From: Clostridiales bacterium
GTDB taxonomy: Bacteria; Bacillota; Clostridia; Lachnospirales; Lachnospiraceae
Direction: 5' to 3'
Assembly: GCA_012839295.1 (NCBI GenBank)
Contig: DUNO01000017.1
Span: 1 to 64,000 of the forward strand
Length of the DNA: 64,000 bases
In this document: positions 11,833 through 61,050 of the stretch, piece by piece
How positions within the stretch are numbered: the first letter of the stretch is position 1
Layout: each line of letters opens with the position of its first letter
Translations under genes and position numbers: made by a program
Notes under the pieces: generated by a model
Databases searched by the model: none
What the model was told of the DNA's origin: nothing
The model's input: the letters and a program-made list of their open reading frames with translations, nothing else

Positions 11833-11907
11833 TGTTGGAACTTCTGATTTATATTATAATACGATTAACAAATGTATCAACCATCAAAATTACACCATGT
11901 GTTGGAA
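11833..11907 (-). promoter_or_regulatory. Promoter with paired TGTTGGAA operators (GH78)
   Basis: On the minus strand a -35 TTGATA (11875-11880) and a -10 TATAAT (11853-11858) are 16 bases apart. TGTTGGAA sites (plus-strand reading) flank them at 11833-11840 and 11900-11907, 67 bases apart. The proximal site is extended as AACACATGTTGGAACTTCT. The same arrangement occurs upstream of GH43 (18.2 kb) and the esterase (61.0 kb). A plus-strand promoter is also possible because TATAAT at 11855-11860 lies 17 bases after ATGTTG. Confidence 0.65.
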
Positions 11908-11910
11908 TCT

Positions 11911-11958
11911 TAAAAAGAAGGGCTGTGCATATAATATAAATTATAGGCAACAGCCCTT
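11911..11958 (-). terminator. Terminator of the PocR-AraC gene
   Basis: Arms AAGGGCTGT (11918-11926) and ACAGCCCTT (11950-11958), followed on the minus strand by CTTTTTA, a good intrinsic terminator 39 bases past the regulator's stop. It isolates the regulator from the GH78 promoter. Confidence 0.8.
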
Positions 11959-11996
11959 GGACAGAGATCAATACATTATCCATTGGTCCCATATCC

Positions 11997-13214
11997 TTAT
12001 TTAGTTATCTTCACCTTGTCCCTGTATTGCTTCGGCGTTATGCTCATCGCCTCTTTGAACACTGCATTAAAATGGCTTTGGGAGCTATAGGATAATTTTG
12101 TACTGATCTCTACGAGGGAAAGATCCGTATATTTTAATAAAAACTTGGCTTCCTTCACCTTGACCTTTTTAATATAATCAACAACTGCGATGCCTGTTTC
12201 CTGCTTAAAAATCCGGGATAGGTACGTATGGCTGATTCCCAGGTGGTCCGCAATCACTGCAACACTTATATTCTCATTGGCATGGGCTTTGATATACTCA
12301 GAGCATTGGTTGACATATGGGGAATAGCTGCGGATTCTGCTCACTTCCTTGACCCTGTTTGCAAATTCGTAAAACATATGCTCAACAATTCCCTGGTCGA
12401 CAGACCGGCTCATGCTCTCAATCTGGCGGATGAAAATATCTGCCAGGGAATATGCCACCTCGCTGTTAAGCCCTCCGTCCATCGCCGCCCTGGAAGCCAA
12501 CGCAATGCCAACAATATATAGGTTCTTCATATTCCTCAGCTCATTACCAGAACATAGAAGCCCCATATTAACCTTGACACCGCTATAGAGCAATTCCTTT
12601 AGTTTATCTGTTGCCCCTATTCGAATGCATTCCCATAGGTACCGCTCGTATTGATAGCTGCCATGCTCCTCAACCCCTGGAAATCCACTGGAGGATTCCT
12701 CCTCCAGCGAGGGGATTTTTTCTATTTTTGCCTTACTGGCAATGCGGATGGATTTCTCATTTACTTCAGCATCATATAAATAACTGTTTGCCAGCCGGAT
12801 GATTCTGATATATTCGTCGTAGGAATAACAGGGTATGTCATTGCGGTAATGCAAAAAAAGCATCTTCCCCGTATCGTCTGCATCCATTTTATCAATTTCA
12901 TCAATCAATATTTTTTCTGATAAACGGTAGCTATAAAAGGGACCGACTGCAATGCATCCGCGTAGGATATCTCCGTCAATAATCGGGAGCGCTATGATTG
13001 TAACGGCGATCTCACTAATGCTGATATGGATCTCTTTTTCTTCCAGGCACTGGCGAACAACATGCTTTGTATCCTCAAGATAACAGTGCAGATGCTCCCC
13101 TTGTAAATTATGTGATAAAGCTTTGACCTCCCCATCAATATCATAAAACGCCGCAACCACTTGATAACCGGCTGAAATCATTTTACATAGCTTGGTGACA
13201 AAATCCAGATTCAT
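11997..13214 (-). CDS. AraC-family regulator with N-terminal PocR sensory domain
   Basis: Transcription factor with a PocR-type ligand-sensing domain at the N-terminus (about 1-160, DFVTKLCKMISAGYQVVAAFYD, then RQCLEEKEIHISIS) and a double-HTH AraC DNA-binding domain at the C-terminus (about 300-406, ending SITPKQYRDK). PocR domains bind small molecules in other regulators (family knowledge); the ligand here is unknown. The ATG at 13214 has GGAGGGATATTG upstream. Its own promoter has the element shared by six promoters in the window, so it is a good candidate for the activator that reads that element, with autoregulation (inference). It ends in its own terminator. Confidence 0.88.
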   Translation of the reverse strand: MNLDFVTKLCKMISAGYQVVAAFYDIDGEVKALSHNLQGEHLHCYLEDTKHVVRQCLEEKEIHISISEIAVTIIALPIIDGDILRGCIAVGPFYSYRLSEKILIDEIDKMDADDTGKMLFLHYRNDIPCYSYDEYIRIIRLANSYLYDAEVNEKSIRIASKAKIEKIPSLEEESSSGFPGVEEHGSYQYERYLWECIRIGATDKLKELLYSGVKVNMGLLCSGNELRNMKNLYIVGIALASRAAMDGGLNSEVAYSLADIFIRQIESMSRSVDQGIVEHMFYEFANRVKEVSRIRSYSPYVNQCSEYIKAHANENISVAVIADHLGISHTYLSRIFKQETGIAVVDYIKKVKVKEAKFLLKYTDLSLVEISTKLSYSSQSHFNAVFKEAMSITPKQYRDKVKITK

Positions 13215-13275
13215 CAATATCCCTCCCCAGGAAAAGAAATAGACCTATTTGAATAGTATCAAGTAATTCCGCTAT

Positions 13276-13315
13276 ATTATATCATGATTTTGTTATTTTT
13301 TATATTTTTTTGCAC
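13276..13315 (-). promoter_or_regulatory. Activator-like promoter element, copy F
   Basis: On the minus strand GTGCAAAAAAATATAAAAAA and TAACA are followed nine to ten bases later by a TATAAT -10 box (13276-13281). It sits about 65 bases upstream of the PocR-AraC start. It shares the TATAAAAAATAAYA core but lacks the AGGTTG start of the other copies. Confidence 0.5.
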
Positions 13316-13431
13316 TGACGAGGAAAAACATACAAATAATATTCTCAATATTCCCATACATTAGTTGAAGATGCTTTATAAATACTGATCTATAGCCATT
13401 GGATTCCCTTGATACGCTACTTTCACCGCTC

Positions 13432-13803
13432 CTACTGTAAAACGGCCCTGCCATATTCAAAATTCTTATGGTAGCTGATTACCTCAATGATTCCGGGTTG
13501 ATATAAAACCTCAAAAATCGCATGATTGTCTGCGCCGGCTCCAATATTCTTTCTGCCATAGCTTTCACCATTTACGAACAGCTCTACTTCGCTTTCATCA
13601 GCCAGTATAATGATTGTTGCCTTTAATCCTTCCTTTCCCGGAAAATTCCAGCTTGATACTGTAATTGGATCAAGCTCACAGACGGATATTCCTTCTGGGA
13701 TGCTCTCACCGGGTGGTAATACCCGGATCATCGGATCTTTACCTGCGCAGTTACTGAGATATGTCTTGATATTCATACCAGAATGGATTCCTTTTCGTTT
13801 CAC
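13432..13803 (-). pseudogene. Remnant of a GH2 beta-galactosidase C-terminus (DUF4982-like)
   Basis: A 123-aa reading frame beginning at GTG. Residues 50-123 (SSWNFPGKEG, SEVELFVNGESYGRKNIG, FEVLYQPGIIEVISY, GRAVLQ) match the DUF4982-type domain near the C-terminus of many GH2 enzymes. The catalytic barrel and sugar-binding domain that normally precede it are absent. The first 45 residues resemble the join region only weakly. It has a weak G-rich ribosome site and an intact shared promoter element upstream, so a short product may still be made. I read it as the leftover of a deletion that fused a promoter to the tail of a GH2 gene; a genuine small stand-alone domain protein is the alternative. 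Confidence 0.65.
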
Positions 13804-13888
13804 TCTCCCGCTCCCCCCTTTGCTTTGATGTGTAAATTTTTGGCTTCTATTATGACTATACCATCATTTTATCGTTTTATTTACAGGG

Positions 13889-13930
13889 TTTATACAAAAT
13901 ATCTATTATTTTTTATAGTTTTTTAACCTA
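13889..13930 (-). promoter_or_regulatory. Activator-like promoter element, copy C
   Basis: On the minus strand TAGGTTAAAAAACTATAAAA with AATAATAG, then eight bases, then TATAAA (13889-13894). It precedes the GH2 remnant and has the same spacing as copies A, B and E. Confidence 0.5.
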
Positions 13931-13951
13931 AAAGGAAATTAACTTAAACAC

Positions 13952-13980
13952 TTGTTGGAATTTAGGTTTTCTACTATAAT
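13952..13980 (+). promoter_or_regulatory. TetR gene promoter with operator over the -35 box
   Basis: -35 TTGTTG (13952-13957), 17-base spacer, -10 TATAAT (13975-13980). The -35 box lies within AACACTTGTTGGAATTT, the same site found around the GH78, GH43 and esterase promoters. A repressor bound here would block RNA polymerase, which points to autoregulation by the TetR protein (inference). Confidence 0.65.
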
Positions 13981-14047
13981 GCTATTAGAAGGCATGCCAG
14001 CTAACCGCCGGCCACTAATTTGTTCTTTTAAATAATGGAGGATTTTA

Positions 14048-14620
14048 ATGAGTAAACCGAGAAATCAGTATTATAAAAACACGGATAAGAAAATACAGAA
14101 CGCAATGCTAGAGCTTCTCCAAACCAAGGAGATCCATAAAATCACCGTGAATGATATTTGCAGCAAAGCGGAAATTAACCGGTCAAGCTTCTATGCCCAT
14201 TACGAAAACATCTATGACCTGATGGAGAAAATGGAGAAGGAAATAGAGCTTGGGGTTGTAGAAATATATAAGAATTCTGATATCAGCTTGGATAACTTTT
14301 TTTCAGAACGGCGGGAGGAATATCTTGCTATCATGATCCGCTTTATTGGGCAGCACAGGGATTTTTACCGGGCTTACATGAAGCTCCATCCTAGTAATGA
14401 TATCGTAAGCTCCATGAGATTGCTGCTTGAAACTGGGAGCCGTCCCTACTTTGATCTGCTGGGACTGGAATCAGAGAAGGATATCATTTACCATCTCACC
14501 TTTTTTAACAAAGGCATGATGTCAGTCATCCAATACTGGATCGATACCGGCTGTGAGGAGACCCCGGAATATCTCTCGAACCTAATTTGGAAGGGCATAA
14601 CGGATTTAGGAAAAAGATAA
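14048..14620 (+). CDS. TetR/AcrR-family transcriptional regulator
   Basis: A 190-aa regulator with an N-terminal TetR helix-turn-helix (about 10-55, KITVNDICSKAEINRSSFYAHYENIYDLMEK) and a C-terminal ligand or dimerisation domain of the type found in dihydroxyacetone-kinase-like TetR relatives. GGAGG lies seven bases before the ATG. It is one of the few plus-strand genes here. Its promoter -35 box overlaps a TGTTGGAA site that is duplicated around three distant hydrolase or esterase promoters, so this protein is my first candidate for the repressor of that group. Effector unknown. A bidirectional terminator follows. Confidence 0.9.
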   Translation: MSKPRNQYYKNTDKKIQNAMLELLQTKEIHKITVNDICSKAEINRSSFYAHYENIYDLMEKMEKEIELGVVEIYKNSDISLDNFFSERREEYLAIMIRFIGQHRDFYRAYMKLHPSNDIVSSMRLLLETGSRPYFDLLGLESEKDIIYHLTFFNKGMMSVIQYWIDTGCEETPEYLSNLIWKGITDLGKR

Positions 14621-14623
14621 GTG

Positions 14624-14649
14624 GAGGGTGTTGCAAGGGCAACACCCTC
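14624..14649. terminator. Bidirectional terminator
   Basis: Perfect 11-base arms GAGGGTGTTGC (14624-14634) and GCAACACCCTC (14639-14649) with a 4-base loop, between the convergent TetR (+) and GH3 (-) genes. It lies three bases past the TetR stop. T runs are weak on both sides. Confidence 0.75.
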
Positions 14650-14655
14650 TCAGCT

Positions 14656-17031
14656 TTAAACTGTCTGGATATCAACATCCGCTACAAAGCCTCTTTTTGT
14701 ACCATCAATAACCAGGCTGTCCTTTATACGGCAAATCCTTTCAGCACGGATATCCTTGGAGGACGCAGCGATTTTCAATGTAATATCACCCTCTTCTACA
14801 ACCCATCTCATATCCTGGTCCAGGAAGGCTGTCTGATCCGTCCGCATAGTGAACATAACCTTTCTGGATTCCCCAGCCGGTATAAAAATCCGTGCAAATC
14901 CAGCCAATTCCAAACCAGGTCGGAGCATAGAGGCATATTCATCCGTGAAATAAAGCTGCACCACCTCTTCCCCTGGCCGGTTCCCAGTATTTGTTACTGT
15001 TACTGATGCTTTTATCACTCCAGCTGCTGTTGTTTCTTCATCCACCATAAAATCACGGTATTCAAATTGGGTATAGCTGTATCCCTCGCCAAAATACCAT
15101 AATGGCTCCTGTATGCCGTTGGAAAAGGAGTTGAAGCCAGGATTCCTCTGGTCCGCTGTCATAAGGTTGCCACGCTTGGAGGATGCGTACATGGGGATCT
15201 GTCCGGCATGCTCCAGGGCCGTCACCGGCAGCCGTCCGGCTGGGTTATAGTCTCCAAAAATCACATCAGCTACTGCACTGCCCCCTGTTTGTCCCGGGCA
15301 CCAGGCTTCCAGAACTGCATTGGCATGATTCTTGGCATACAAAGAAGAGATCGGGCGCGTATCGCCATGTACAACCACGACAGGTGTTCCTGTCTCACAA
15401 AGAGCCTTAAGGAGCTCCTCCTGGACGCCTGGCAGTCCTATCTTTGTGCTGTCCCGCCCTTCACCGGAGGTACAGGGCTCTCCCCAGCCATATTTTCCGC
15501 CGGCAGCAAAAATCACCGCATCGCTATCCGAGGCTAAGGCTATGGCTGCCCCGAAGGCGCTCCTGTCATCTCCGGCAATATCACAGCCTTTTTCATACAA
15601 GACAGTTGTATCAGGGCATTTTTTTGCTATTGCATCGAATATGGTAGGAGTTATTCGTCCCAGCATAGCCTCCAGCATGGGCTCCAGCTGTTCTGATTCT
15701 TTTTTTACAGAGCTGTTTGGATAATATTCCTCTGCTTCCCCACCCATATTGATGCCGATCCCTTTTAACAGGCCGCCCATGCTCATCTCCAAACCGGCGG
15801 GTGCCGTATATCCCCCAAACATCATGCGGATGCTGTCAGCCCTTGGGCCTATCACTGCAATCTTGTCCAATTCCTTCGACAAAGGTAACATACCGTCGTT
15901 TTTCAATAGGACTATGGATTCCCTTGCCAAACGGATGCTTTGTGCTTCATTGGAAGCATCCCTATATACCTCAGGAATCAAATCTGCATGGGGATAGGGA
16001 TTTTCAAATAGCCCCATCTTGAACTTTAAGGTAAGGATACGCAGAACTGCCTGGTCTATTTGCTCCTCTTTCACCCTGCCGGACTTTACTGCGTCGTAAA
16101 GGCAGGGATATGTCTCCGGGTTTTGGCACTCGATATCCATGCCTGCGTTAAAGGCACGCGCAGCTGCAGCTTCCCTCGTGCTTTCTATTCTTTTTTCCAT
16201 CAGCTGGATAACCGAGCCGTAATCAGACACGGTTACTCCCTGAAACTTCATCTCTTCACGTAACAGTCCTGTCAGAATGGATTTTGAGGCTACTACTGGC
16301 TCGTTGTCCGGTGCTGCGTAGGAGTTCATGACCGTCTGCAGGTCGCCGTCTGTGATTGCGGCCTGAAAAGGCTTTGCATATGCTTCCCTGAGATCCCTTG
16401 GTGAAATTGCGTTGGATGCGCTATTATATCCGCCTTCTCCCATAGCATACCCCAGGAAATGCTTGCCGGTGGCACTGACCCCTTCCGTCAGCTCCTTACC
16501 TTGAAGTCCTTTTACGAATGCAGTGGACATAGCCGCACATAAGGTAGGATCCTCACCATAGGTTTCCCCCATGCGTCCCCATCTGGGATCCCGTGCCACA
16601 TCCATCACGGGGGAGCATGCCCTGCGTATGCCGACAGAGCGCATTTGCTCCTGTATGATCCCAGTCATTTCAAAGACAGCCGGAGTGTTAAAGGTTGCGG
16701 CCAGCCCAATTGCAGAGGGAAATGAGGTTGCCCCTGGGCTGATTAAGCCGGAAACAGCCTCCGCCTGGAGCACGGGCGGGATTCCCCCTGTCTTCTCCAT
16801 GACGGCATCTATGATTCTCCGGTTGACAGAAGCTATGTCCTCCGGTGTCTGCGCCATGCTTGCAGACAAAACCTCTCCTACCCCGTCAGGATAATCTTCC
16901 AGGGTCTGCTTTGGATCCCCTGTAAACATTTTGCACATCAGCTGCCCGATTTTTTGTGACAGGGTAAGCCGTTGCAGGAGATCCCTGGCCCTTTCCTCCG
17001 GCGGCAGATTCACGTTTTTATAATCCTCCAT
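14656..17031 (-). CDS. Glycoside hydrolase family 3 (BglX/xylosidase-like)
   Basis: Retaining beta-glycosidase with normal GH3 order, 791 aa. The TIM barrel is at about 15-330 (ARDPRWGRMGETYGEDP, GKHFLGYAMGEGG, nucleophile Asp 270 in VSDYGS). The alpha/beta domain is at about 370-620 (ESIVLLKNDGMLPL) and the FnIII-like domain is last (TNTGNRPGEEVVQLYF). No signal peptide, so it acts inside the cell on imported oligosaccharides. The motif set is closest to BglX-like beta-glucosidases and beta-xylosidases; the sugar cannot be fixed by eye. AAGGAGAAGG precedes the ATG. It follows a GH43 gene by 15 bases and shares its promoter, so arabinoxylan- or xyloside-type substrates are plausible (inference). 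Confidence 0.92.
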   Translation of the reverse strand: MEDYKNVNLPPEERARDLLQRLTLSQKIGQLMCKMFTGDPKQTLEDYPDGVGEVLSASMAQTPEDIASVNRRIIDAVMEKTGGIPPVLQAEAVSGLISPGATSFPSAIGLAATFNTPAVFEMTGIIQEQMRSVGIRRACSPVMDVARDPRWGRMGETYGEDPTLCAAMSTAFVKGLQGKELTEGVSATGKHFLGYAMGEGGYNSASNAISPRDLREAYAKPFQAAITDGDLQTVMNSYAAPDNEPVVASKSILTGLLREEMKFQGVTVSDYGSVIQLMEKRIESTREAAAARAFNAGMDIECQNPETYPCLYDAVKSGRVKEEQIDQAVLRILTLKFKMGLFENPYPHADLIPEVYRDASNEAQSIRLARESIVLLKNDGMLPLSKELDKIAVIGPRADSIRMMFGGYTAPAGLEMSMGGLLKGIGINMGGEAEEYYPNSSVKKESEQLEPMLEAMLGRITPTIFDAIAKKCPDTTVLYEKGCDIAGDDRSAFGAAIALASDSDAVIFAAGGKYGWGEPCTSGEGRDSTKIGLPGVQEELLKALCETGTPVVVVHGDTRPISSLYAKNHANAVLEAWCPGQTGGSAVADVIFGDYNPAGRLPVTALEHAGQIPMYASSKRGNLMTADQRNPGFNSFSNGIQEPLWYFGEGYSYTQFEYRDFMVDEETTAAGVIKASVTVTNTGNRPGEEVVQLYFTDEYASMLRPGLELAGFARIFIPAGESRKVMFTMRTDQTAFLDQDMRWVVEEGDITLKIAASSKDIRAERICRIKDSLVIDGTKRGFVADVDIQTV

Positions 17032-17046
17032 AACCTTCTCCTTCTC

Positions 17047-18135
17047 TTATATAAAATCCTCTAATTTCCATTCGTCATACCATTCGATAATAGGCCTGTC
17101 CCCGTCAAATCTGACCGGCAGCCACACATAATCTGCCATGGCTGTATTGCAGTTATCGATTTTGATCTTCCGTTTGACCTTTTTCTCCTTGCGTATCATC
17201 TCCTGCACACGCTCCTTGGAAATGAACCTGGCAAGGTTTTTCAGGGATTTTTCATATTGGTCCATATAGGGCTTGGAAGCATCCTTTACCAATTTCATGT
17301 CCGGCAGCCAACGATCCCCCATGGCAATGTATAAATCCGTACCCACAACATTGAAGATCTCGCTGATCTGGCTGCCATAGGAGGTCCGTGTCTCATCCTT
17401 GGGGTGCAGATCCCCAAGCTCTGTAAAGGGACCGAGGTAGCCGCCTCCAACAGCAACCTCAGAAGGATTGGGCTTGTAGCCGGTTATCCCGGAGGTGACC
17501 AGATAATGCTTGCCCTTCCGGATGAAATGCACCGGTGCTTCCCTCGCATAGGGTGGAAAATCCCGTTCATAATGCACGGTATAGTTCTCCGACACGGACA
17601 GGTAATCATCGGTCAGCTCGGCGCTGATGATGCTGGTATGTATCTTATCAAAATAATAATACGCCTTCCCTGTAACGGCATCCTTGCTCAGGTAGAAATC
17701 CCCGGCGCTCATTCCATAAGGCCGGTACCCTGTTTTCACCAGGGTATATGGCCCAAGGAAGCTGTCCGCAGTATAGATCGTGACGGTTTGGATGTTGTTA
17801 TGCCCCATAATTTTAAGCCAGCAGACATACTTTCCGGTTTTATCGTTGAAGAGGATATGGGGTCTGTCCATCAAGGATGTCGGGTGTACCGGTGAGGATG
17901 GATCCTCCTCGTCAGGGGCTATGAGCAGCCCCACATCCTCCCAGTTATACAGGTCTGTGGATTGATAGCAGCGTACTCCCCAATGCCAGATGTTCTTACC
18001 CTTTGTAGAGAACTCTTTGTTTTCGCCGTACCAGTAATAGATGCCATCAAGATAGTAAATTCCGCCGGCATGTGCCTGGATCCGCTTCCCTTGCGTATCA
18101 TACATGGGCCTGCCTGGGGTAAATGAAGATACCAT
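17047..18135 (-). CDS. Glycoside hydrolase family 43 protein
   Basis: Five-bladed beta-propeller hydrolase of the GH43 type (362 aa), in a subgroup whose N-terminus reads AHAGGIYYLDGIYYWYGENK followed by YQSTDLYNWEDVGLL. Such enzymes usually cleave beta-xylosides, alpha-arabinofuranosides or beta-galactosides (family knowledge). I start it at ATG 18135 (MVSSFTPGRP) because AGGAGGGAAC lies just upstream; the longer frame from 18177 has no comparable site. It has no signal peptide. It is the first gene of a two-gene operon with the GH3 at 14656-17031 and is driven by a promoter flanked by paired TGTTGGAA operators. Confidence 0.85.
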   Translation of the reverse strand: MVSSFTPGRPMYDTQGKRIQAHAGGIYYLDGIYYWYGENKEFSTKGKNIWHWGVRCYQSTDLYNWEDVGLLIAPDEEDPSSPVHPTSLMDRPHILFNDKTGKYVCWLKIMGHNNIQTVTIYTADSFLGPYTLVKTGYRPYGMSAGDFYLSKDAVTGKAYYYFDKIHTSIISAELTDDYLSVSENYTVHYERDFPPYAREAPVHFIRKGKHYLVTSGITGYKPNPSEVAVGGGYLGPFTELGDLHPKDETRTSYGSQISEIFNVVGTDLYIAMGDRWLPDMKLVKDASKPYMDQYEKSLKNLARFISKERVQEMIRKEKKVKRKIKIDNCNTAMADYVWLPVRFDGDRPIIEWYDEWKLEDFI

Positions 18136-18197
18136 TATGTTCCCTCCTATTTGTAAATTTTCTTTCTGATCTATCATTATTCCTAAAGTTTATACAC

Positions 18198-18275
18198 TTG
18201 TTGGAACTTCTGTCTCATATTATAATGGATTACCAGCGCTTATATCAATCATCAAAAATAGAGAATCTGTTGGAA
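18198..18275 (-). promoter_or_regulatory. Promoter with paired TGTTGGAA operators (GH43-GH3)
   Basis: Minus-strand -35 TTGATA (18243-18248) and -10 TATAAT (18219-18224), 18 bases apart. TGTTGGAA sites at 18199-18206 and 18268-18275 are 69 bases apart. The proximal site is extended as ACACTTGTTGGAACTTCT, as at GH78. Plus-strand TTGTTG (18198-18203) and TATAAT (18221-18226) are 17 bases apart, exactly as in the TetR promoter. Confidence 0.65.
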
Positions 18276-18317
18276 TTTATCCGCTCTTTATACGATTATC
18301 CAGCATCATACTACAGC

Positions 18318-18353
18318 GAAAGAGAGATTGCTTGAGCTTCAACCTCTCTTTTC
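18318..18353 (-). terminator. Terminator after binding-protein remnant
   Basis: Minus-strand stem GAGAGGTTG / CAATCTCTC with a short loop, located just after the stop of the truncated binding-protein frame. It probably was the original gene's terminator. Confidence 0.55.
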
Positions 18354-18365
18354 CTGTACTGGCAA

Positions 18366-18665: not shown

Positions 18666-18686
18666 AAGCCCGCGAACATCAACATA

Positions 18687-20286: not shown

Positions 20287-20303
20287 GAAATCCATCGAAC
20301 TGC

Positions 20304-40171: not shown

Positions 40172-40212
40172 AATATATAAAAAATCCATTATTTTTTATA
40201 TATTTTCAACTA
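40172..40212 (-). promoter_or_regulatory. Activator-like promoter element, copy A
   Basis: On the minus strand TAGTTGAAAATATATAAAAA and ATAATGG, then about eight bases, then TATATA or TATATT (40172-40179). It lies about 90 bases upstream of the GH3 at 40087, and its far end touches the stop codon of the permuted GH3 gene. Confidence 0.55.
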
Positions 40213-42768
40213 AACCTGTATTCCTTCTATCCATTTTTCATAGGACGGCGAATTCATAACGAAGTAAAGAAGATGTGCTGCTGCCTCCATCAACTGCTCC
40301 TTGCTTACCCGCCCCTCTCTGTAGCCTTGAAGAACCTGTTTGATAACCGGAGGGCCTCCCGGCATGATTACATCATTACCTGCCGCAACCGCATCAGCAC
40401 CATCCACTGCAATGTCCATATCGCCCCAGTCAGTAACAACCACGCCTTTAAATCCCCACTCATCCCGCAGTATTTTTGTACAGAGGTCATGATTGCCGCC
40501 AGCTAAGGTACCGTTGATCTTATTGAAGGATGTCATAATCGTAGTAATCGGGCAATTTTTAACGATGATCTCAAAGGGCTTTAGGTACAATTCCCTCGCT
40601 GTACGCTCTGATACGATAGAATCTGCCGCATCTATGGATAGACGGGAGGATCCCCTGCGGTAGGTTTCCTGTTCATTAATAGCAAAATGCTTCGGGCATG
40701 CCGTTACTGATGAATTTTCCGCCACCCCCTTGCAGATATATAGTCCGCAGATTCCCGTTACAACCGGGTCTTCTGAGAAATATTCATAATTTCTGCCGCC
40801 AAGAGGATTACGGTGCAGATTAATGGCTGGAGCAAGCCAGCTATCTACCTCTAGCTGCTCAGCCTCATAGGCTGTGGCAGCGCCAAAGGCATAGAATAAA
40901 TCCTTGTTAAAGCTGCAAGCCATAGTCATTCCCGTTGGCCAAGCAGTCAGTCCCACGCTGGCTGGGCCATCCTTATAGCATGCGGATGGAATGCCATATT
41001 TAAGCAGTGCAGGCGATACATAGCCCATCATTCCGGTCTTGTGGGTTTTCATGGCTATATCAGTACCATCCTCATACTGAATGGTGGCTACCGCCTCTGA
41101 TCCCATACCGCCAAAGGGTAACCCTGACCCGTATCCATTGGCCAGAACCGCCAGCTCTTCAATCGACATCTGTGAAAGGAATTGATCCATGGTCACTACC
41201 CCATTCTTCACATCAGCCAGCTTGCTTTTTACCGGCTCTGCCGGCTGCGTCTTAACCACCGGAGACACTGCATTGGTCCTGATGTCTGAATTGGTTAGCT
41301 GGATACAAATAGCACGCTCCATCTCCTCCTGCTCTTTGCTATAGGTAATTGGTGAGCAGCCCTTCGTAGTAAGAAAATCAATCTTGCCGCGGTTTGCCTC
41401 ATGGATGGAGAGCGCATTGCTCAGCTGTTCACAAAGAATGGTTTCCTCCACTGCCAGGCCGCCTGCAATATGCGTATTTCTAGAGCTTACACCTGCGCGG
41501 ATATAATATGTTCCCGGCTCAAGAATCCACGCAGCCTGCTCCTCATCATAGGAAGCCATGTCTGAGGCGGAAAATGAAACTGTAACCCGCTCCTTCTCTC
41601 CTGGTGCCAGCAAGCCGGTTTTTTCACAGCCAAGGTAGGACTGATACGGCTTCTCCAAGGCTCCCCGGGGTGCGGATACATAGATCTGCAGTGTCTCTTT
41701 TCCACAATATTCCCTTGAAAGATTCGTTATGACGGCTGAAACTGAGATACTTCCCTCCTGCTTTTCCAGCTTAAGATCCGAAACTGAGAATTCAGCATAA
41801 GAGAGCCCATATCCAAAGGGATAAATTACGTCCTTGCCAAAGGAATCAAAATAACGGTATCCCATATACAGCCCTTCGCTATACAACGTCACAGGGCTCT
41901 TCGCAAAGCCAAGGCTTCCATTTGCAGCTGCATCCAGGCCATAATGCTTATATTCCAGGATGCTGTCAGGCTGATCCTTATCGTAGCTAAAATTATGTGC
42001 CGTCGGATAGGCTCCATATGACCCTGCGATGGTGAATGCCAGCTTCCCGGAAGGGGTTGCCCTTCCTGCCAGAAGCTTTGCCACCGCTGCCGGCCCTTGC
42101 TCACCAGGCGTTCCCATAAAAAGGACTGCCAGGATATTAGGGTATTTAAAAATCCATGAAACATCTATGACACCATTGATATTTAGCAGCAGGACTACCT
42201 TTTGAAAGGATTTGCAGACAGAATCAAGCAGCTCGGTTTCACCGGGCAGCAGCTCATAATCATTTTTAATTCTGCGGTCGCATTCCTCACCTCCGGTATT
42301 CCTTCCCAGAACGATCAATGCAGTATCTGTCTCGGCCCTTGCTTTAAGCATCAATTCGTCGGATACCCTTAACTCCTCCACCTGTGCATGGTACCGGCCA
42401 AAGATCTCGTAAATGGCGCCGCTCGCCACCAAATCCACCCCAGAAGCTGCCAAATCCATCAATTCCTTGAACATCCCACCGTCTTCTTCCTTCTCCATGG
42501 TCGATTGGTAGAAGCTGTGTAGCTCCGAGGCTGGAAAGATACCCTGCTTCTCGCATTCCTGGGTGATGGTTGGAAGTTTAAGCTCCTTAGTGGATGCGCC
42601 AGAGCCCATGCCGCCAAGATTCGGTTTATAGCATGCCCTCCCAAAAAAGGCGACCCTTCCTCCTTTGATGGGCAGGCACTGTGCTTCATTTTTTAACAGC
42701 ACGGCAGATTCACCTGCTATTTTATTTGCCAGCTTAATCCTGGCTTCTTCTGATGCGTATGGATTCAA
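40210..42768 (-). CDS. Glycoside hydrolase family 3, circularly permuted domain order
   Basis: Second reversed GH3 in the window (852 aa). The protein opens directly with the alpha/beta domain (ESAVLLKNEAQCLPIKG at about 20) and runs through VIYPFGYGLSYAEF to a FnIII-like domain (about 360-430). The catalytic barrel is last (about 530-852) with NLHRNPLGGRNYEYFSEDP, CPKHFAINEQETYRRG and nucleophile Asp 780 in VVTDWGDMD. Compared with the copy at 4084-6726 it lacks the 135-residue N-terminal region. Start is TTG at 42768 with AGGAGG nine bases upstream, and this TTGA overlaps the stop of the GH3 upstream, so they are translationally coupled. No signal peptide; substrate unknown. Confidence 0.92.
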   Translation of the reverse strand: MNPYASEEARIKLANKIAGESAVLLKNEAQCLPIKGGRVAFFGRACYKPNLGGMGSGASTKELKLPTITQECEKQGIFPASELHSFYQSTMEKEEDGGMFKELMDLAASGVDLVASGAIYEIFGRYHAQVEELRVSDELMLKARAETDTALIVLGRNTGGEECDRRIKNDYELLPGETELLDSVCKSFQKVVLLLNINGVIDVSWIFKYPNILAVLFMGTPGEQGPAAVAKLLAGRATPSGKLAFTIAGSYGAYPTAHNFSYDKDQPDSILEYKHYGLDAAANGSLGFAKSPVTLYSEGLYMGYRYFDSFGKDVIYPFGYGLSYAEFSVSDLKLEKQEGSISVSAVITNLSREYCGKETLQIYVSAPRGALEKPYQSYLGCEKTGLLAPGEKERVTVSFSASDMASYDEEQAAWILEPGTYYIRAGVSSRNTHIAGGLAVEETILCEQLSNALSIHEANRGKIDFLTTKGCSPITYSKEQEEMERAICIQLTNSDIRTNAVSPVVKTQPAEPVKSKLADVKNGVVTMDQFLSQMSIEELAVLANGYGSGLPFGGMGSEAVATIQYEDGTDIAMKTHKTGMMGYVSPALLKYGIPSACYKDGPASVGLTAWPTGMTMACSFNKDLFYAFGAATAYEAEQLEVDSWLAPAINLHRNPLGGRNYEYFSEDPVVTGICGLYICKGVAENSSVTACPKHFAINEQETYRRGSSRLSIDAADSIVSERTARELYLKPFEIIVKNCPITTIMTSFNKINGTLAGGNHDLCTKILRDEWGFKGVVVTDWGDMDIAVDGADAVAAGNDVIMPGGPPVIKQVLQGYREGRVSKEQLMEAAAHLLYFVMNSPSYEKWIEGIQV

Positions 42769-53776: not shown

Positions 53777-53794
53777 AATCTGTCAATTCTTAAT

Positions 53795-54829: not shown

Positions 54830-54870
54830 TTGCACCTCGATCAATTTCAATTCTTGTATTAGATTAATTA

Positions 54871-54899
54871 ATAATACTGCATATGATCTGCTCTGACAA
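54871..54899 (-). promoter_or_regulatory. Promoter of the LacI gene
   Basis: Minus-strand TTGTCA (54894-54899), 17-base spacer, TATTAT (54871-54876). The sequence around the -10 (CAGTATTATTAA) is the same as in the symporter promoter at 58.1 kb. It overlaps the gap after the first sulfatase gene. Confidence 0.6.
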
Positions 54900-54909
54900 G
54901 GGATTCCCC

Positions 54910-56529: not shown

Positions 56530-56564
56530 AATGGCCACTCCTTCTTTCTTTACCTATAACACCT

Positions 56565-57971
56565 TTATTCGCTGGCTGCAGCGGCATTATCTGCGGCTGA
56601 TCTCTCATTCAGCTCTGAGCGGATCTGCTGTATCATCTTGTTATCAATGTTGTAGAAAATAATCGCCAGTGCAGATATTACAGTAAGAATTGTCGGTAAT
56701 CCGAAACGCAGGAAAACAATAGTATCCTTTACCGCAGCGGTCGGTTCAACATTGGCTATAAACCCGGCTAATCCCATAATAAAGCTTGCCAGGAATCCTC
56801 CCAAGGCTGTTCCAAGCTTGTTTGTAAAAGTCAATGAAGCTGTAATTGTGCTATTTCCCCGTAAACCATATTTCCACTCGGAATAGTCTACACATTCCGG
56901 CAGCATGGACCAGCCGAGATTTGAAGGGAAGCGTGAGAAGAAGCTGGTCCACCCCAATGCGACACAAAGGACTGTGGCTGTAGCATTCGGCTGAAACCAT
57001 AGAACTATTAATGAAAGCACACTGATTAAATCACATATAATATAAATCAGCTTCTTGCCAAATCGTTTGGCCAATGGAGGCATGATAAATATAACTACTA
57101 CTGAAGCAATAATAGATATAAATGAGGTTATCATAACCAGATCCATTCTATTTAAAATGTATTTAAAGTAATACACATTCACTGCTGCGGAAACCGCACC
57201 TCCAAGCAGAATACAGAAGAAGGATACCAACAGGGATATTAGGGGACGATTTTTAAAAATTATTTTAAGCTGGTCGGAAATTTTGACCTTAGTTTCCTTC
57301 GTCACCTCAGGTAATGTGGAAAGATTATCATATCTCTTGGCACTTGAAGCACAAATATAAAAGGATATTGCAATGATAATACCGCACATAGCACCAAACC
57401 AAGCCCATCCAATCCGTCCGCCTCCACAGGCCTCAACGATATTTAAACCAAAGCTGGTTATAACTAGCTGGGCGATAATTCCCATTCCCTGCTTTAATGA
57501 GACGATGACATTACGCTGATTGGGATCCTGCGATATAACCGGCGTAAGGGAATGATAAGGAATATTGGCAAAATCTGAAAAGGTTGAGTAAAGGATATAT
57601 GTAACATATACATAAATTATCTTAGCGCTTTCACTTAGCTCCGGTGCATAGAATACTAAGAAGGTAAAGAGACCCAGTAACGGGGCACCGATAATAATCC
57701 ATGGACGGTAACGTCCCAAGCGGGTACGGGTACGATCTCCTAATATACCCATCAGCGGATCGGTAACGGCATCAAAAATACGGGTAACAAGCATTACTCC
57801 TGAAACAACAAGGGCTGAAATTCCCATGACATCCGTATAAAAGTAATTCAGATAAGTCATCATTAGAATAAAGGGAATGTTCGATCCCAATCCGCCAAAG
57901 GAATAGCGGATTATTTCTGAGGTTGTAGCTTTTTGAAACTTGTTGCTTTGACTCTTTCCATTGCTTTTCAT
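56565..57971 (-). CDS. GPH-family sugar-cation symporter
   Basis: Importer of the MFS_2 type (468 aa), about twelve membrane segments, with MGILGDRTRTRLGRYRPW as the typical loop between segments 2 and 3. AGGAGG before the ATG. It is the first gene of the sulfatase unit and probably imports a sulfated mono- or oligosaccharide (inference). The promoter has two LacI palindromes downstream of the -10 box. Confidence 0.9.
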   Translation of the reverse strand: MKSNGKSQSNKFQKATTSEIIRYSFGGLGSNIPFILMMTYLNYFYTDVMGISALVVSGVMLVTRIFDAVTDPLMGILGDRTRTRLGRYRPWIIIGAPLLGLFTFLVFYAPELSESAKIIYVYVTYILYSTFSDFANIPYHSLTPVISQDPNQRNVIVSLKQGMGIIAQLVITSFGLNIVEACGGGRIGWAWFGAMCGIIIAISFYICASSAKRYDNLSTLPEVTKETKVKISDQLKIIFKNRPLISLLVSFFCILLGGAVSAAVNVYYFKYILNRMDLVMITSFISIIASVVVIFIMPPLAKRFGKKLIYIICDLISVLSLIVLWFQPNATATVLCVALGWTSFFSRFPSNLGWSMLPECVDYSEWKYGLRGNSTITASLTFTNKLGTALGGFLASFIMGLAGFIANVEPTAAVKDTIVFLRFGLPTILTVISALAIIFYNIDNKMIQQIRSELNERSAADNAAAASE

Positions 57972-58019
57972 AAAATAGAATCCTCCTAATTATATTTGTC
58001 GGTAATTCTTCCGACATTT

Positions 58020-58035
58020 TTGAAAGCGCTTTCAA
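58020..58035. promoter_or_regulatory. LacI operator, promoter-distal copy
   Basis: TTGAAAGCGCTTTCAA is a perfect 16-bp palindrome located about 50 bases before the symporter ATG. Its centre is 54 bases from the second copy, which allows looping or cooperative binding. Confidence 0.8.
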
Positions 58036-58074
58036 CATTAAACAAAAAAATTCGGCCGTAAAGTTTTCTTATTC

Positions 58075-58088
58075 TGAAAGCGCTTTCA
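58075..58088. promoter_or_regulatory. LacI operator, promoter-proximal copy
   Basis: TGAAAGCGCTTTCA, a perfect 14-bp palindrome about 16 bases downstream of the symporter -10 box, in the place where a bound repressor would block transcription. Confidence 0.8.
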
Positions 58089-58103
58089 ACCATTAACAAT
58101 TTA

Positions 58104-58132
58104 ATAATACTGTATAATATCTTCTGTGGCAA
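58104..58132 (-). promoter_or_regulatory. Promoter of the GPH-sulfatase unit
   Basis: Minus-strand TTGCCA (58127-58132), 17-base spacer, TATTAT (58104-58109). The gene-free stretch 57972-58402 (431 bases) holds this promoter, the two LacI operators, the divergent promoter of the HTH gene, and otherwise AT-rich sequence without other recognisable signals. Confidence 0.65.
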
Positions 58133-58347
58133 TTGCTATTATCTACAAAATATCCAATTATATTTTGGTGTTTTTTCACAATCATCCTGGCTATCAGCAC
58201 CTTGCATCATAGGTATATGGTCTTTGACTTCTAAGCTTATCGGGCTTTTCGGATTCAGCATAAACTTAATGAGTATATTATACACGTTTTTAATATATCA
58301 CTGATATTTTTTTGATTATTTTATAAACCTTTTTGAGTATGTTCGTA

Positions 58348-58376
58348 TTGACAGCATCATACCATTCATGTATAAT
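58348..58376 (+). promoter_or_regulatory. Sigma-A promoter of the HTH-Uma2 pair
   Basis: Consensus TTGACA (58348-58353), exact 17-base spacer, TATAAT (58371-58376). It lies 26 bases upstream of the HTH gene start. It looks strong and constitutive. Confidence 0.8.
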
Positions 58377-58402
58377 GAAATCCGAAAAGGAGTGAACATT
58401 AT

Positions 58403-58633
58403 ATGTCAGTAACGGATAAAGTAAAGGCTTTACTATCCATCAAAGGTAATAAAAATATAGAGCTTGCACAATACTTAGGAATAACACCGCAGTCGTTGCA
58501 AAATAAATTTAATCGCGGAAGTTTTTCAGCTGAGGATCTGATCAAGATAGCTGATTTCCTAAGTTGCTCCTTGGAATTCAGTATTGATGATAAGCAGAAA
58601 ATCGTTCTTAGTATGGAAGACATCAGAGAATAA
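58403..58633 (+). CDS. Small helix-turn-helix protein
   Basis: A 76-aa Xre-like DNA-binding protein. Residues 5-60 form a helix-turn-helix (NIELAQYLGITPQSLQNKFNRGSF, then EDLIKIADFLSCSLEF). AAAGGAG before the ATG. It is 44 bases upstream of the Uma2-type gene on the same strand and probably cotranscribed from the strong promoter. Small HTH genes next to nuclease-fold genes are sometimes regulatory partners, but no toxin-antitoxin family was recognised. Confidence 0.85.
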   Translation: MSVTDKVKALLSIKGNKNIELAQYLGITPQSLQNKFNRGSFSAEDLIKIADFLSCSLEFSIDDKQKIVLSMEDIRE

Positions 58634-58677
58634 CACGAAAGAAGCATTATCAAATGAAAAGGAAAGGAAGTGTTATA

Positions 58678-59226
58678 ATGCCATTACCACAGGAAAGAAA
58701 ATATACCGAGGATGATTACAACAACCTGCCGGAAGATGTCCGAGCTGAACTTATTGACGGGCAGATTTATTATCAGGCGGCGCCAAGCCGTATACATCAA
58801 AAGATACTAATGGAATTGGCGGGAACAATCAGAGATTACATTCGTTCCAATGATGGCTCATGTGAGGTCTACCCTGCTCCATTCGCTGTTAAATTGAATG
58901 AAGATAGCAGTAGTATAGTCGAACCAGATATAAGCGTTATATGCGACACTGGCAAGCTTACAGACAAAGGGTGTACTGGTGCGCCAGATTGGATCATTGA
59001 AATTGTATCCCCTGGGAATTCTAGTCATGATTATATTGTAAAGCTGGGCTTATATAAGGCCACAGGAGTAAGAGAATACTGGATTGTGAATCCGCAGGCT
59101 AAGTCTGTTCTGGTATACTACTTCGATGAAGTAAACCTTGTCCCTAAGTCATATACCTTCAGGGATGAAGTAAAAGCGAATATTTATGATGGTTTGATTA
59201 TTGATCTTTCTACAATTAACATATGA
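58678..59226 (+). CDS. Uma2-family PD-(D/E)XK nuclease-fold protein
   Basis: A 182-aa protein of the Uma2 (DUF820) family. The opening RKYTEDDYNNLPEDVRAELIDGQIYYQAAPS, then VEPDISVICD, then GAPDWIIEIVSPGNSSHDYIVKLGLYKATGVREYWIVNP match the family's restriction-endonuclease-like core, with acidic residues in PD and EIV. I start it at ATG 58678 (MPLPQERKYTE) because AAAGGAAG is just upstream. Function is not established for the family; a role in mobile or defence processes is often suggested. It stands apart from the sugar genes. Confidence 0.87.
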   Translation: MPLPQERKYTEDDYNNLPEDVRAELIDGQIYYQAAPSRIHQKILMELAGTIRDYIRSNDGSCEVYPAPFAVKLNEDSSSIVEPDISVICDTGKLTDKGCTGAPDWIIEIVSPGNSSHDYIVKLGLYKATGVREYWIVNPQAKSVLVYYFDEVNLVPKSYTFRDEVKANIYDGLIIDLSTINI

Positions 59227-59286
59227 GGCACCGTATGCGCATACATGGGTATATCTCTGCTGTAGAGCCCCATCTCCTCCCCAGAT

Positions 59287-59358
59287 CCCTAGCCTTAGGG
59301 TTTCGCCAACATTGGGAAGAATGTTGCGTAATAATAATGGCGGGAAATTCTTCCCGCC
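59287..59358. other. Cluster of three stem-loops in a convergent gap
   Basis: Three small hairpins in a row: CCCTA/TAGGG (59287-59291 and 59296-59300), CAACATT/AATGTTG (59307-59313 and 59320-59326), GGCGGGAA/TTCCCGCC (59339-59346 and 59351-59358). They lie between the convergent Uma2 (+) and esterase (-) genes. No T run clearly marks any as a terminator. The wider gap 59227-59395 contains no gene I can support. Confidence 0.55.
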
Positions 59359-59395
59359 TACGGTGGTCCAAAGAGTTTACACCCAGACCATATTT

Positions 59396-60949
59396 TTACT
59401 GCTCCTTCCATTGCATCAAAAATGGCTTTGCCGGAATATCAGCCTTGTTATATAAATTAACTTGATAATATCCGGTCTTAGCAAATTCAACCGTTACCTG
59501 CTTTGCCTGCTCAAATTGTTCCGATGTGATGATAAGCTGGTCTCCCTCAATCCTTAAGCCGATATTATTGACTTCCGTATCATCAACGGAAATCCGGATG
59601 GCATTCAGGGAATTCCCTTCCATATGTAATCCCTCTCCATGCAAAAACGAGACAATTACCACCCGCCCCTTCTTCTTTATCGACTTAGCTTCCGGCGCAT
59701 CGCTTAGGATATCTTCCCCATACACTTTGTTCCTTGCACATAAAGCCAATCGGTGCCCTACCGGTTTTTTTCTTTTTGGATGAATATCATATTCATCGCC
59801 AACATCTGAGATGGAGATCATATAGCTATCCTTAACCGTTTTGCTTACGGCCTCCTGCTGCTCACGCACAATGATAAATTGATCACCTGTGGAATTCATC
59901 CACTGGCCAAATGGAGGCAATTGAACAAATAGAAATGGCAGATCATCCTTCCAGTCCCTGCGCCAGCATTCGATCATCTTGGAAAATAGCTTTGTATATA
60001 GGCCAGCCTTCGCCGCATCATTTTCTCCCTGATACCAAATTACACCCTTTGATGTGTACCCTGATATCCGGCTTAACATCATTTTATACAGACCGGAAGG
60101 ACGGTTCTCACTATTTGGGCCAACCGCTGCATAATTTTCTGCATAAAGCTTATCTTGCTCCGGCGATGATGTTGTTTGTCCTGATGCGCTGACTAGCTCT
60201 TGAATCATTTCCATGGAATTGATGGAATTCCTCATTAAATAATCCATAATTTTTTTCGACTCCGGCATTTCTTTTCCTTGCCGTATTATCTTATTAATCC
60301 TATAATATTGTTCCAGATCCAGCTTAGTCTCCTGTGCCTCATAATCCGTCAGATAGGAGCTTAACTCTTGATCAGCGGCTAAATATTCTTCTTCAATCCA
60401 CGCTGAAGCAGACGTCCCACCCCAGTTACAACCCACGATGGCTACAGGTACTCTTAATTCTTTTCGTAATTCCATCGCAAAATAAGTTCCTACCGCTGAA
60501 AATTCAGAAGCATGAGCTGGTTGGAGGGTGAGCCATTTATCCCACTTGGAATCATCCTTGAAGCCTTCCTCGCGCTCTCCCTCAAAAGCATATTTTGCTA
60601 CATCATAATATCTAACGTGGTCATCGTCTGCATTTGCAATCACAGCATCTCCTTCCACATCGTATCTTAGGAAGAATTCCATATTGCTCTGCCCACCGGC
60701 AATCCATACTTCACCAATATCTACCCGCTCTAACACTACGCTACCTATCTCCAGCTTGACATTCTCTGCTGCCTCCTGTGCCGGAAGAAAAAATTCAAAG
60801 GATCCCTTAGGAATATCCTCACAAGCGATAAGGTGACCATCTATTTTTATCTTAATCTCCTCAGCTGAATCACTTTCTCCCCAAAACCTGATCGGCTTTT
60901 GTCTTTGTAATGTCATACCACTTTGGAAAATATCGGCCAGCTTAATCAT
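59396..60949 (-). CDS. Sialate O-acetylesterase-like SGNH hydrolase
   Basis: Carbohydrate esterase of the sialate O-acetylesterase type (517 aa). N-terminal beta domain (FQSGMTLQRQKPIRFWGES), then the SGNH core with nucleophile Ser 88 in IAGGQSNMEF, block GCNWGGTSASAW, and WYQGENDAAKAGLY; the catalytic His region lies near GDEYDIHPKRKKPVGHR. A C-terminal beta segment follows. No signal peptide, so it deacetylates imported substrates. GGAGG before the ATG. It stands alone, driven by a promoter with paired TGTTGGAA operators like GH78 and GH43, hence part of the same response though 40 kb away. Confidence 0.9.
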   Translation of the reverse strand: MIKLADIFQSGMTLQRQKPIRFWGESDSAEEIKIKIDGHLIACEDIPKGSFEFFLPAQEAAENVKLEIGSVVLERVDIGEVWIAGGQSNMEFFLRYDVEGDAVIANADDDHVRYYDVAKYAFEGEREEGFKDDSKWDKWLTLQPAHASEFSAVGTYFAMELRKELRVPVAIVGCNWGGTSASAWIEEEYLAADQELSSYLTDYEAQETKLDLEQYYRINKIIRQGKEMPESKKIMDYLMRNSINSMEMIQELVSASGQTTSSPEQDKLYAENYAAVGPNSENRPSGLYKMMLSRISGYTSKGVIWYQGENDAAKAGLYTKLFSKMIECWRRDWKDDLPFLFVQLPPFGQWMNSTGDQFIIVREQQEAVSKTVKDSYMISISDVGDEYDIHPKRKKPVGHRLALCARNKVYGEDILSDAPEAKSIKKKGRVVIVSFLHGEGLHMEGNSLNAIRISVDDTEVNNIGLRIEGDQLIITSEQFEQAKQVTVEFAKTGYYQVNLYNKADIPAKPFLMQWKEQ

Positions 60950-60975
60950 GATTCTCCTCCTTCAAATCAAAACAC

Positions 60976-61050
60976 ATGTTGGAACTTCTTATTTTATTAT
61001 AATACTTAAGAATCACATATCAACCACCAAAATCATGAAAAATGTTGGAA
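60976..61050 (-). promoter_or_regulatory. Promoter with paired TGTTGGAA operators (esterase)
   Basis: Minus-strand TTGATA (61018-61023), 16-base spacer, TATAAT (60996-61001). TGTTGGAA sites at 60977-60984 and 61043-61050, 66 bases apart. The near site is extended as AACACATGTTGGAACTTCT. The region around the -35 (TTTTGGTGGTTGATA) resembles the GH78 promoter (TTTTGATGGTTGATA). Confidence 0.65.

What the first reader, a model, noticed from the sequence alone, without database searches (positions are those of the whole stretch)
11833..61050. A shared promoter module with paired TGTTGGAA sites at three distant loci
GH78 (11833-11907), GH43-GH3 (18199-18275) and the esterase (60977-61050) have the same layout: TTGATA -35 and TATAAT -10 (spacers 16, 18, 16), a conserved TTTTGRTGRTTGATA-like stretch at the -35, and a TGTTGGAA site on each side, 66-69 bases apart. 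The downstream copy is extended to ACACWTGTTGGAACTTCT in all three. The match extends far beyond chance and defines a regulon linking rhamnosidase, propeller hydrolase and esterase, so they likely act on one decorated substrate. The two sites around each promoter suggest looping repression.
Basis: partly seen in the sequence, partly recalled or inferred. Interest (0 to 1): 0.72.

Follow-up and report, generated by a model that had tools for sequence, protein, structure and literature searches.

The report
TetR-controlled promoter set for sugar-cleaving enzymes
The look-alike promoters are real: they carry what look like the binding sites of a TetR-type regulator encoded between them, which probably switches a small set of sugar-degrading genes together, and the same site-plus-regulator pairing recurs in many other Clostridia, where it mostly serves other genes.

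Summary
The three promoter modules are real and far from chance. The exact site pair occurs four times in the 6.36 Mb genome: the three reported and a fourth before a GH43 gene at C16:85070. The reversed-pattern control has none. A decayed fifth lies near C16:101534-101620. (1) The downstream box is an 18-bp near-palindrome, TTCCAACA-WG-TGTTTRAA. At two mismatches or fewer it occurs only at those four promoters and once over the -35 of a tetR gene inside the window (14048-14620). (2) In other genomes the upstream element (TTCCAACA-N12-TTGRTGRTTG) sits beside a divergent TetR gene at 60 of 80 held loci, usually with a second operator 68-69 bp away (49 of 58). (3) The window TetR is, of the TetRs found in this genome, closest to those TetRs. 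Best explanation: a TetR regulon, probably repressor-controlled. A TetR-like repressor of Saccharopolyspora is known to bind TCAACA-n2-TGTTGA (PMC6346578, passages), much like this palindrome. A shared substrate is plausible, not shown. Looping is untested. The conserved TTGATGATTG beside the -35 is unexplained.

The parts
14048..14620 (+). tetR gene (190 aa, TetR_N + TetR_C_8), proposed regulator
   Evidence: Pfam; best of the 7 own-genome TetRs found to the HMM of operator-linked TetRs, 138 bits against 83 for the next
13943..13960 (-). operator-like site at the tetR promoter, TTCCAACAAGTGTTTAAG, overlapping its -35
   Evidence: 1 mismatch to the 18-mer; one of five genome sites at 2 mismatches or fewer; -35 TTGTTG 13952-13957, spacer 17, -10 13975-13980
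11823..11840 (-). P1 downstream operator O1 TTCCAACATGTGTTTGAA, about +7 to +24 if transcription starts 7 bases after the -10
11853..11880 (-). P1 core promoter: -35 TTGATA 11875-11880, -10 TATAAT 11853-11858, spacer 16
11881..11907 (-). P1 upstream element O2: TTCCAACA-CA-TGGTGTAA (11890-11907) plus TTGATGG (11881-11887)
9172..11781 (-). P1 target: GH78 alpha-L-rhamnosidase; followed by GPH symporter 7756-9135, LacAB/RpiB isomerase 6975-7547, GH3 4084-6729, solute-binding protein 2122-3852 and two ABC permeases (operon extent not shown)
   Evidence: Pfam and NCBIfam
18189..18206 (-). P2 downstream operator O1 TTCCAACAAGTGTATAAA
18219..18275 (-). P2 core promoter (-35 18243-18248, -10 18219-18224, spacer 18) and O2 element TTCCAACA-N12-TTGATGATTG
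17047..18177 (-). P2 target: GH43-like protein, then GH3 14656-17031
   Evidence: Pfam
60967..60984 (-). P3 downstream operator O1 TTCCAACATGTGTTTTGA
60996..61050 (-). P3 core promoter (-35 61018-61023, -10 60996-61001, spacer 16) and O2 element TTCCAACA-N12-TTGGTGGTTG
59396..60949 (-). P3 target: SASA-type carbohydrate esterase
   Evidence: Pfam

Best explanation
The modules are promoters of a TetR-family regulon. The regulator is the TetR_C_8-type protein encoded at 14048-14620. As a dimer it binds the 18-bp near-palindrome TTCCAACA-WG-TGTTTRAA just downstream of each start site (about +7 to +24) and the related upstream element TTCCAACA-N12-TTGRTGRTTG, which ends in the -35. Without a small-molecule inducer it blocks transcription of GH78 (probably with its GPH transporter), GH43-GH3, the SASA esterase and a GH43 gene outside the window. 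It also represses its own gene through one operator over the tetR -35. An inducer from the substrate (a glycoside, its sugar or its aglycone) would release it. The layout descends from a compact self-regulated module found in many Clostridia and some Bacilli, in which tetR and one target are transcribed divergently between two operators. In this genome the target promoter is found at scattered loci on one contig while tetR kept one operator. Shown: the sites, their genome-wide exclusivity, the TetR-site pairing across genomes and the conserved geometry. Inferred: binding, the repressing sign, the inducer, the ancestry and the shared substrate.
For: Four exact modules and a decayed fifth, all on one contig; controls empty. 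The 18-mer at 2 mismatches or fewer occurs 5 times in 6.36 Mb: four target promoters and the tetR promoter. A second operator, not part of the pattern, is present in 54 of 58 such loci (7.7 expected from shuffles), 49 at offset 68 or 69. Chosen by protein similarity alone, 15 of 29 TetR homologs carry the element upstream (0.13 expected; 0 of 116 control stretches), 12 of the 15 closest. The window TetR scores 138 bits against the operator-linked profile, the next own paralog 83; recognition helices nearly agree (INRSSFYAHY, VNRSTFYAHY). The G184 TetR is divergent to an MFS_2 transporter beside GH78 genes, spacer 17, offset 68. The TetR-like repressor SACE_5754 needs TCAACA-n2-TGTTGA and footprints on AAATCAACACTTGTTGAATTA (PMC6346578, passages).
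Against: No binding or expression data here. In the window the right half of the upstream palindrome is lost in P2-P5, yet the TTGRTGRTTG beside it is kept; a plain TetR operator does not explain that. The window TetR is only 39% identical to its nearest hit; its pairing with G184 has modest support (93/80) and the wider group (85/72, 17 rows) also holds two own paralogs and rows without the motif; several branches are long. 3 of the 15 closest homologs and 11 of the 14 weaker ones lack a clear element. The nearest named family, DhaS, is annotated as an activator. An AraC-type gene lies between P1 and tetR, and two AraC-type genes lie in the G184 cluster. No other sampled genome shows these glycosidase targets with near-exact sites.
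Confidence: 0.83

Rival explanations
1. The AraC-family protein encoded at 11997-13217 binds TTCCAACA and TTGRTGRTTG as two direct half-sites 21 bp apart, overlapping the -35, and activates the promoters (class II type); the downstream site is a third half-site.
For: The AraC gene lies directly upstream of P1. The gap between TTCCAACA and TTGRTG is fixed at 12 bp and the latter abuts the -35. The G184 cluster also has AraC-type genes. AraC and LacI types are the usual regulators of glycan loci in related Firmicutes (PMC5320581, passages).
Against: In other genomes the element sits beside TetR genes (60 of 80); no frame similar to the window AraC lies within 500 bp of any of the 80 sites and 3 within 2 kb. 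The downstream site is an inverted repeat. A genome-exclusive copy is in the tetR promoter and no exact TTCCAACA lies in the stretch just before the AraC gene.
Confidence: 0.06
2. The TetR is mainly an activator, like DhaS of Lactococcus: bound at the upstream element next to the -35 it recruits RNA polymerase when its ligand is present, while the +7 operator tunes or represses.
For: Nearest curated family is DhaS, annotated as an activator (TIGR02366, 50.7 bits, cutoff 129); nearest solved chains include a DhaK-regulator homolog and DhaS. TTGATGATTG is kept next to a poor -35 (mostly TTGTTT) in relatives.
Against: The promoters in this genome are near consensus (TTGATA, TATAAT). The best-conserved operator here lies over the early transcribed region and the tetR site overlaps its -35, both repressor positions. 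A TetR-like protein with a very similar operator represses (PMC6346578).
Confidence: 0.14
3. Looping repression: two dimers on either side join and trap the promoter in a loop of about 67 bp. This is a sub-case of the TetR explanation.
For: Both sites are conserved at near-fixed spacing here and in many other genomes.
Against: Spacing follows the promoter spacer in 47 of 54 loci (7 exceptions). 68 bp is about 6.5 turns of 10.5 bp. TetR proteins usually act as dimers without a tetramer contact (recalled). In the divergent layout each operator already has its own blocking position.
Confidence: 0.1
4. Chance or a recent duplication of one promoter region.
For: The bare TGTTGGAA is only about twice its expected number in the window; the spacers of P2/P5 and P1/P4 are partly alike.
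Against: Zero control hits for the pair in the genome; flanks between modules are unrelated; conservation with TetR genes in other genera.
Confidence: 0.01

Closest known systems
SACE_5754 (TetR-like repressor, Saccharopolyspora erythraea; PMC6346578, passages seen)
   Same: Footprinted on AAATCAACACTTGTTGAATTA and GTTATTCAACATGCGTTGAAAACT; TCAACA-n2-TGTTGA is needed for binding; represses three target genes directly. The operator core and the 2-base gap match the palindrome described here.
   Different: Distant actinomycete; its targets are not glycosidases; its protein was not compared with this TetR; no promoter with two flanking sites or TTGATGATTG was seen in the passages read.
DhaS (TetR family, Lactococcus lactis dha operon; TIGR02366, PDB 2iu5; homolog 4mk6)
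   Same: Nearest curated family and among the nearest solved structures by sequence.
   Different: Score far below the family cutoff (50.7 against 129 bits); no dihydroxyacetone kinase domain among the proteins scanned here; operators placed as for a repressor; targets are glycosidases.
Divergent self-regulated TetR systems (e.g. tetR-tetA, recalled)
   Same: Regulator and target divergent with two palindromic operators between them is the common layout in the relatives found here.
   Different: Here the target promoter exists at four or five scattered loci, and a non-palindromic TTGATGATTG block is conserved beside the -35.
Gram-positive polysaccharide utilization loci (gpPULs; PMC5320581, passages seen)
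   Same: Glycosidases, transporter and a regulator clustered; one gpPUL there lists a TetR (Ros-8).
   Different: [quoted passage not shown] here one TetR appears to control several separate units.
Bidirectional pseudo-symmetrical promoters (PMC12825309, PMC10268837; starts of abstracts in the listing)
   Same: In the relatives the TATTATACTATAAT-like -10 region can be read as a -10 in both directions (by eye sequences).
   Different: P1-P5 are not next to tetR; I saw no gene divergent from the same -10 but did not test for one.

Membership tests
TetR-family regulator with cognate operators | TetR_N HTH and TetR C-terminal domain in the regulator | tested here: met
   PF00440 25.0 bits (cutoff 24) and PF14278 37.9 bits (cutoff 26.1)
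TetR-family regulator with cognate operators | Inverted-repeat operator overlapping promoters of targets and of the regulator gene | tested here: met
   18-mer near-palindrome at four target promoters and at the tetR -35, nowhere else at 2 mismatches or fewer
TetR-family regulator with cognate operators | Regulator-site linkage across genomes | tested here: met
   60 of 80 pattern-selected loci; 15 of 29 protein-selected loci
TetR-family regulator with cognate operators | Direct binding, and release by a ligand | not testable with these tools
   needs gel shift or footprinting
DhaS (TIGR02366) | Score above the curated cutoff | tested here: not met
   50.7 bits against 129
DhaS (TIGR02366) | Linked dihydroxyacetone kinase genes | tested here: inconclusive
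   no such domain among the window and contig proteins scanned with Pfam; not every ORF was scanned
AraC-controlled promoter | Sites linked to AraC genes in other genomes | tested here: not met
   0 of 80 sites within 500 bp of a frame similar to the window AraC, 3 within 2 kb
Loop-forming repressor pair | Helical-phase constraint between the sites independent of the promoter | tested here: inconclusive
   offset follows spacer length in 47 of 54 loci, but the range is too narrow to decide

The most novel reading that the evidence does not exclude
A widespread, apparently undescribed TetR subfamily in Clostridia recognises a composite element: an 18-bp palindrome plus TTGATGATTG abutting the -35. 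It acts as a dual activator and repressor on a bidirectional promoter. In this lineage it was rewired from a one-target self-regulated switch (small membrane or phasin-like protein, alcohol dehydrogenase) into a multi-locus regulator of plant-glycoside breakdown.
Probability: 0.2. Interest if true: 0.65.

Novelty: new variant of a known kind. Interest (0 to 1): 0.5.

Why it matters
It names a specific regulator for a set of separate glycosidase and esterase genes and gives an operator that can be searched for, so a regulon can be read from sequence. It also shows a regulator-operator pair kept across many Clostridia while its targets differ (membrane or dehydrogenase genes elsewhere, glycan genes here and in G184), a clear case for studying how regulons are rewired. 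In the rows listed by my full-text searches (several lists were cut) I saw no paper on this site with this TetR group; one TetR-like regulator with a very similar palindrome is known in an actinomycete (PMC6346578). Most subscription papers are not in that library.

Tried and rejected
The AraC gene at 11997-13217 was considered first as the regulator because of its position; it was set aside once the family hits proved to lie beside TetR genes and no AraC-like frame lay near the 80 sites. Isolated matches to GTTCCAACAWGTG elsewhere in the genome: at 2 mismatches or fewer the short pattern gives 166 hits against 150 in the control, i.e. noise; of nine one-mismatch copies outside this contig seven lie in stop-free frames of 333-613 codons. 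The 18-mer at 3 mismatches is also at background (26 hits in all at 3 or fewer against 21 control hits). Eight of the 13 non-own hits are taken as chance: no TetR frame was found in their 3-kb loci. Of 80 loci, 16 have neither the TetR nor a usual target and are taken as chance. The other 8 genomes of G184's genus gave no match to the window TetR at E 1e-12. A DhaS-related hit (PMC12647141, passages) concerns another regulator.

2 of 60 loci were too short for the second-operator count. The profile used the 55 of 60 TetR frames over 150 aa. The profile was seeded with the window TetR and four others, all four from loci first found by the motif. Three of the 15 protein-selected positives (G192, G085, G194) had already been found by the pattern. 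Of the matches only 29 non-own loci were held and tested. In some searches one of these (L236) was read at the wrong place; read rightly it still lacks the element, so the count stands. The tree used 66 rows, about half of the pattern-selected TetRs, and one own paralog (L068) was not recovered. No structure prediction was run.
Full report
Check of the observation. The three modules are present as described, on the minus strand, upstream of GH78 (9172-11781), GH43-GH3 (17047-18177, 14656-17031) and a SASA-type esterase (59396-60949). -35 TTGATA and -10 TATAAT have spacers of 16, 18 and 16. The 8-mer alone is weak (7 against 3.0 expected), but the pair occurs only 4 times in the 6.36 Mb genome and never in the reversed control. 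The fourth is at C16:85070-85143, about 250 bp before a GH43 gene (C16:83176-84810; Pfam Glyco_hydro_43 and GH43_C2). A fifth, decayed copy lies at about C16:101534-101620; downstream of it are a frame broken early and a GH3 C-terminal piece.

The downstream site extends to TTCCAACA-WG-TGTTTRAA, an imperfect 8-2-8 inverted repeat at about +7 to +24 (start site assumed 7 bases after the -10). At 2 mismatches or fewer it occurs five times in the genome: at P1, P2, P3 and P4, and at 13943-13960; the decayed P5 copy is outside that limit. The 13943 site overlaps the -35 (TTGTTG 13952-13957, spacer 17, -10 13975-13980) of a gene at 14048-14620 encoding a TetR-family protein. The upstream site has the same TTCCAACA (TCCCAACA in P5) followed, always 12 bp later, by TTGRTGRTTG running into the -35 (TTGTTGATTG in P5); its own right half is a recognisable repeat only in P1. 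Flanks are unrelated between the modules (20-34% identity), while the 14 bases before the -10 range from 21 to 71%, so the elements are old or selected rather than recently copied.

Which regulator. A search of 299 genomes of the family (own included, 298 genera) with TTCCAACA-N12-TTGRTGRTTGATA at up to 2 mismatches hit 14 including this one; the control gave none. Of the 13 others, five hits (G192, G194, G085, G250, G271) lie beside a TetR-like frame and a divergent gene (in G250 the frame is short); the other eight have no TetR frame in their loci. In 60 of these 80 a TetR gene lies within 200 bp of the site and in all 60 it is divergent to the promoter. Four more have a usual target gene; 16 have neither. 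No frame similar to the window AraC lies within 500 bp of any of the 80. The second operator was not part of the pattern, yet a CAACA-NN-TGTTG core with at most 3 of 10 mismatches is found downstream in 54 of 58 (7.7 expected from shuffles), 49 of them at offset 68 or 69. Turned round, taking TetR genes by protein similarity alone, 15 of 29 homologs have the long element within about 260 bp upstream, against 0.13 expected and 0 of 116 control stretches; 12 of the 15 closest and 3 of the 14 weaker ones have it. Of the seven TetRs found in the own genome the window TetR is by far the closest to the operator-linked proteins (138 bits against 83 for the next), and its recognition helix is nearly theirs. 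In a tree of 66 rows it pairs with the G184 TetR (93/80) in a moderately supported group of 17 (85/72) that holds 11 operator-linked TetRs but also two own paralogs and two further rows without the motif; the motif label needs 5 changes against 16.7 in shuffles, and several branches are long.

A relative that also sits with rhamnosidase genes. The closest TetR outside the genome (G184, 39% identity) is divergent to an MFS_2 sugar transporter that is followed by the C-terminal part of a rhamnosidase; on its other side lie a full GH78-type rhamnosidase and a PfkB-family kinase; two AraC-type genes are also in the stretch. Its promoter has diverged half-sites but the same geometry: AAACAACA-CA-TGTTTATA upstream, ATGATGGCTG at +20, spacer 17, -10 TATAAT, and a second site at offset 68. 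It was scored as 'no motif' by the strict rule.

Independent precedent. In Saccharopolyspora erythraea the TetR-like repressor SACE_5754 was footprinted on AAATCAACACTTGTTGAATTA, and TCAACA-n2-TGTTGA was needed for binding (PMC6346578, passages). This is nearly the palindrome seen here, with the same 2-base gap, in a distant phylum. I did not compare the two proteins.

Likely mechanism. In the common divergent module each operator has two positions: O1 over the early transcribed region of the target and over the -35 of tetR, O2 upstream of the target's -35 and in the early transcribed region of tetR (by eye on sequences). A TetR dimer at O1 would block the target directly and close the tetR promoter, giving self-limited repression released by a ligand. 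In this genome tetR keeps one operator and the target promoter occurs at four intact loci. The sign (repressor) is inferred from operator positions, near-consensus promoters and the SACE_5754 precedent. The kept TTGRTGRTTG, even where the O2 palindrome has decayed, suggests a further contact there, by TetR or another protein; that is not explained. Looping is not required: spacing follows promoter spacer length in 47 of 54 loci.

Functions of the targets. GH78, GPH symporter, LacAB/RpiB-type isomerase, GH3, a solute-binding protein and permeases follow P1; GH43-like and GH3 follow P2; an esterase follows P3; GH43 follows P4. A plant glycoside or hemicellulose/pectin side chain containing rhamnose and pentoses would fit, but the inducer is unknown. 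In the 64 credible modules the targets differ: small membrane and/or phasin-like proteins (labels by eye) in 50, an alcohol dehydrogenase in 8, both kinds in 1, unclassified in 5. So the regulator-operator pair is widespread and the glycan targets look like a local acquisition; none of 33 congeners has the module.

What is known. NCBIfam's nearest model is DhaS at 50.7 bits, cutoff 129, and the nearest solved chains include a DhaK-regulator homolog and DhaS. In Roseburia/E. [quoted passage not shown] Searches for the site strings and for TetR with GH78, GPH or Lachnospiraceae terms listed, besides PMC6346578, no paper that I could see to be about such a site; several lists were cut.

Noticed in passing
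C16:101534-101620 (L043) with 100888-101337: Decayed fifth copy of the module before a GH3 C-terminal piece: operators and target appear to be decaying together.
   Followed up: partly
window 13432-13803 (-): Short ORF whose only Pfam match is DUF4982, possibly the tail of a lost larger glycosidase, between the AraC and tetR genes.
   Followed up: partly
80 loci L071-L150; e.g. L074, L075, L121: A widespread divergent module in Clostridia and some Bacilli: TetR_C_8 regulator with a small membrane protein, often also a phasin-like repeat protein (label by eye, no Pfam match), or an alcohol dehydrogenase. I saw no description of it in the listings.
   Followed up: partly
own genome C55:397512 (L066, position 1344): A paralogous TetR gene has a similar palindrome (CAACACCTGTTG) before a TATAAT upstream of it, so related TetRs may use related operators.
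   Followed up: no
G271:C1 (L063, between 9423 and 9543): A more distant TetR, divergent to ABC transporter genes, has the same module with TTCCAACA, TTGTTGGTTGATA, a -10 and a downstream ACAACAAGTTGTTG.
   Followed up: partly
Murimonas intestini L145 / G250 (L062): The TetR frame beside an intact-looking site and dehydrogenase target is short (79 aa found), possibly a broken regulator gene.
   Followed up: no
window 4084-6729 and 40210-42768 (-): GH3 proteins with the C-terminal domain ahead of the N-terminal catalytic domain (permuted order), one in the putative P1 unit.
   Followed up: partly
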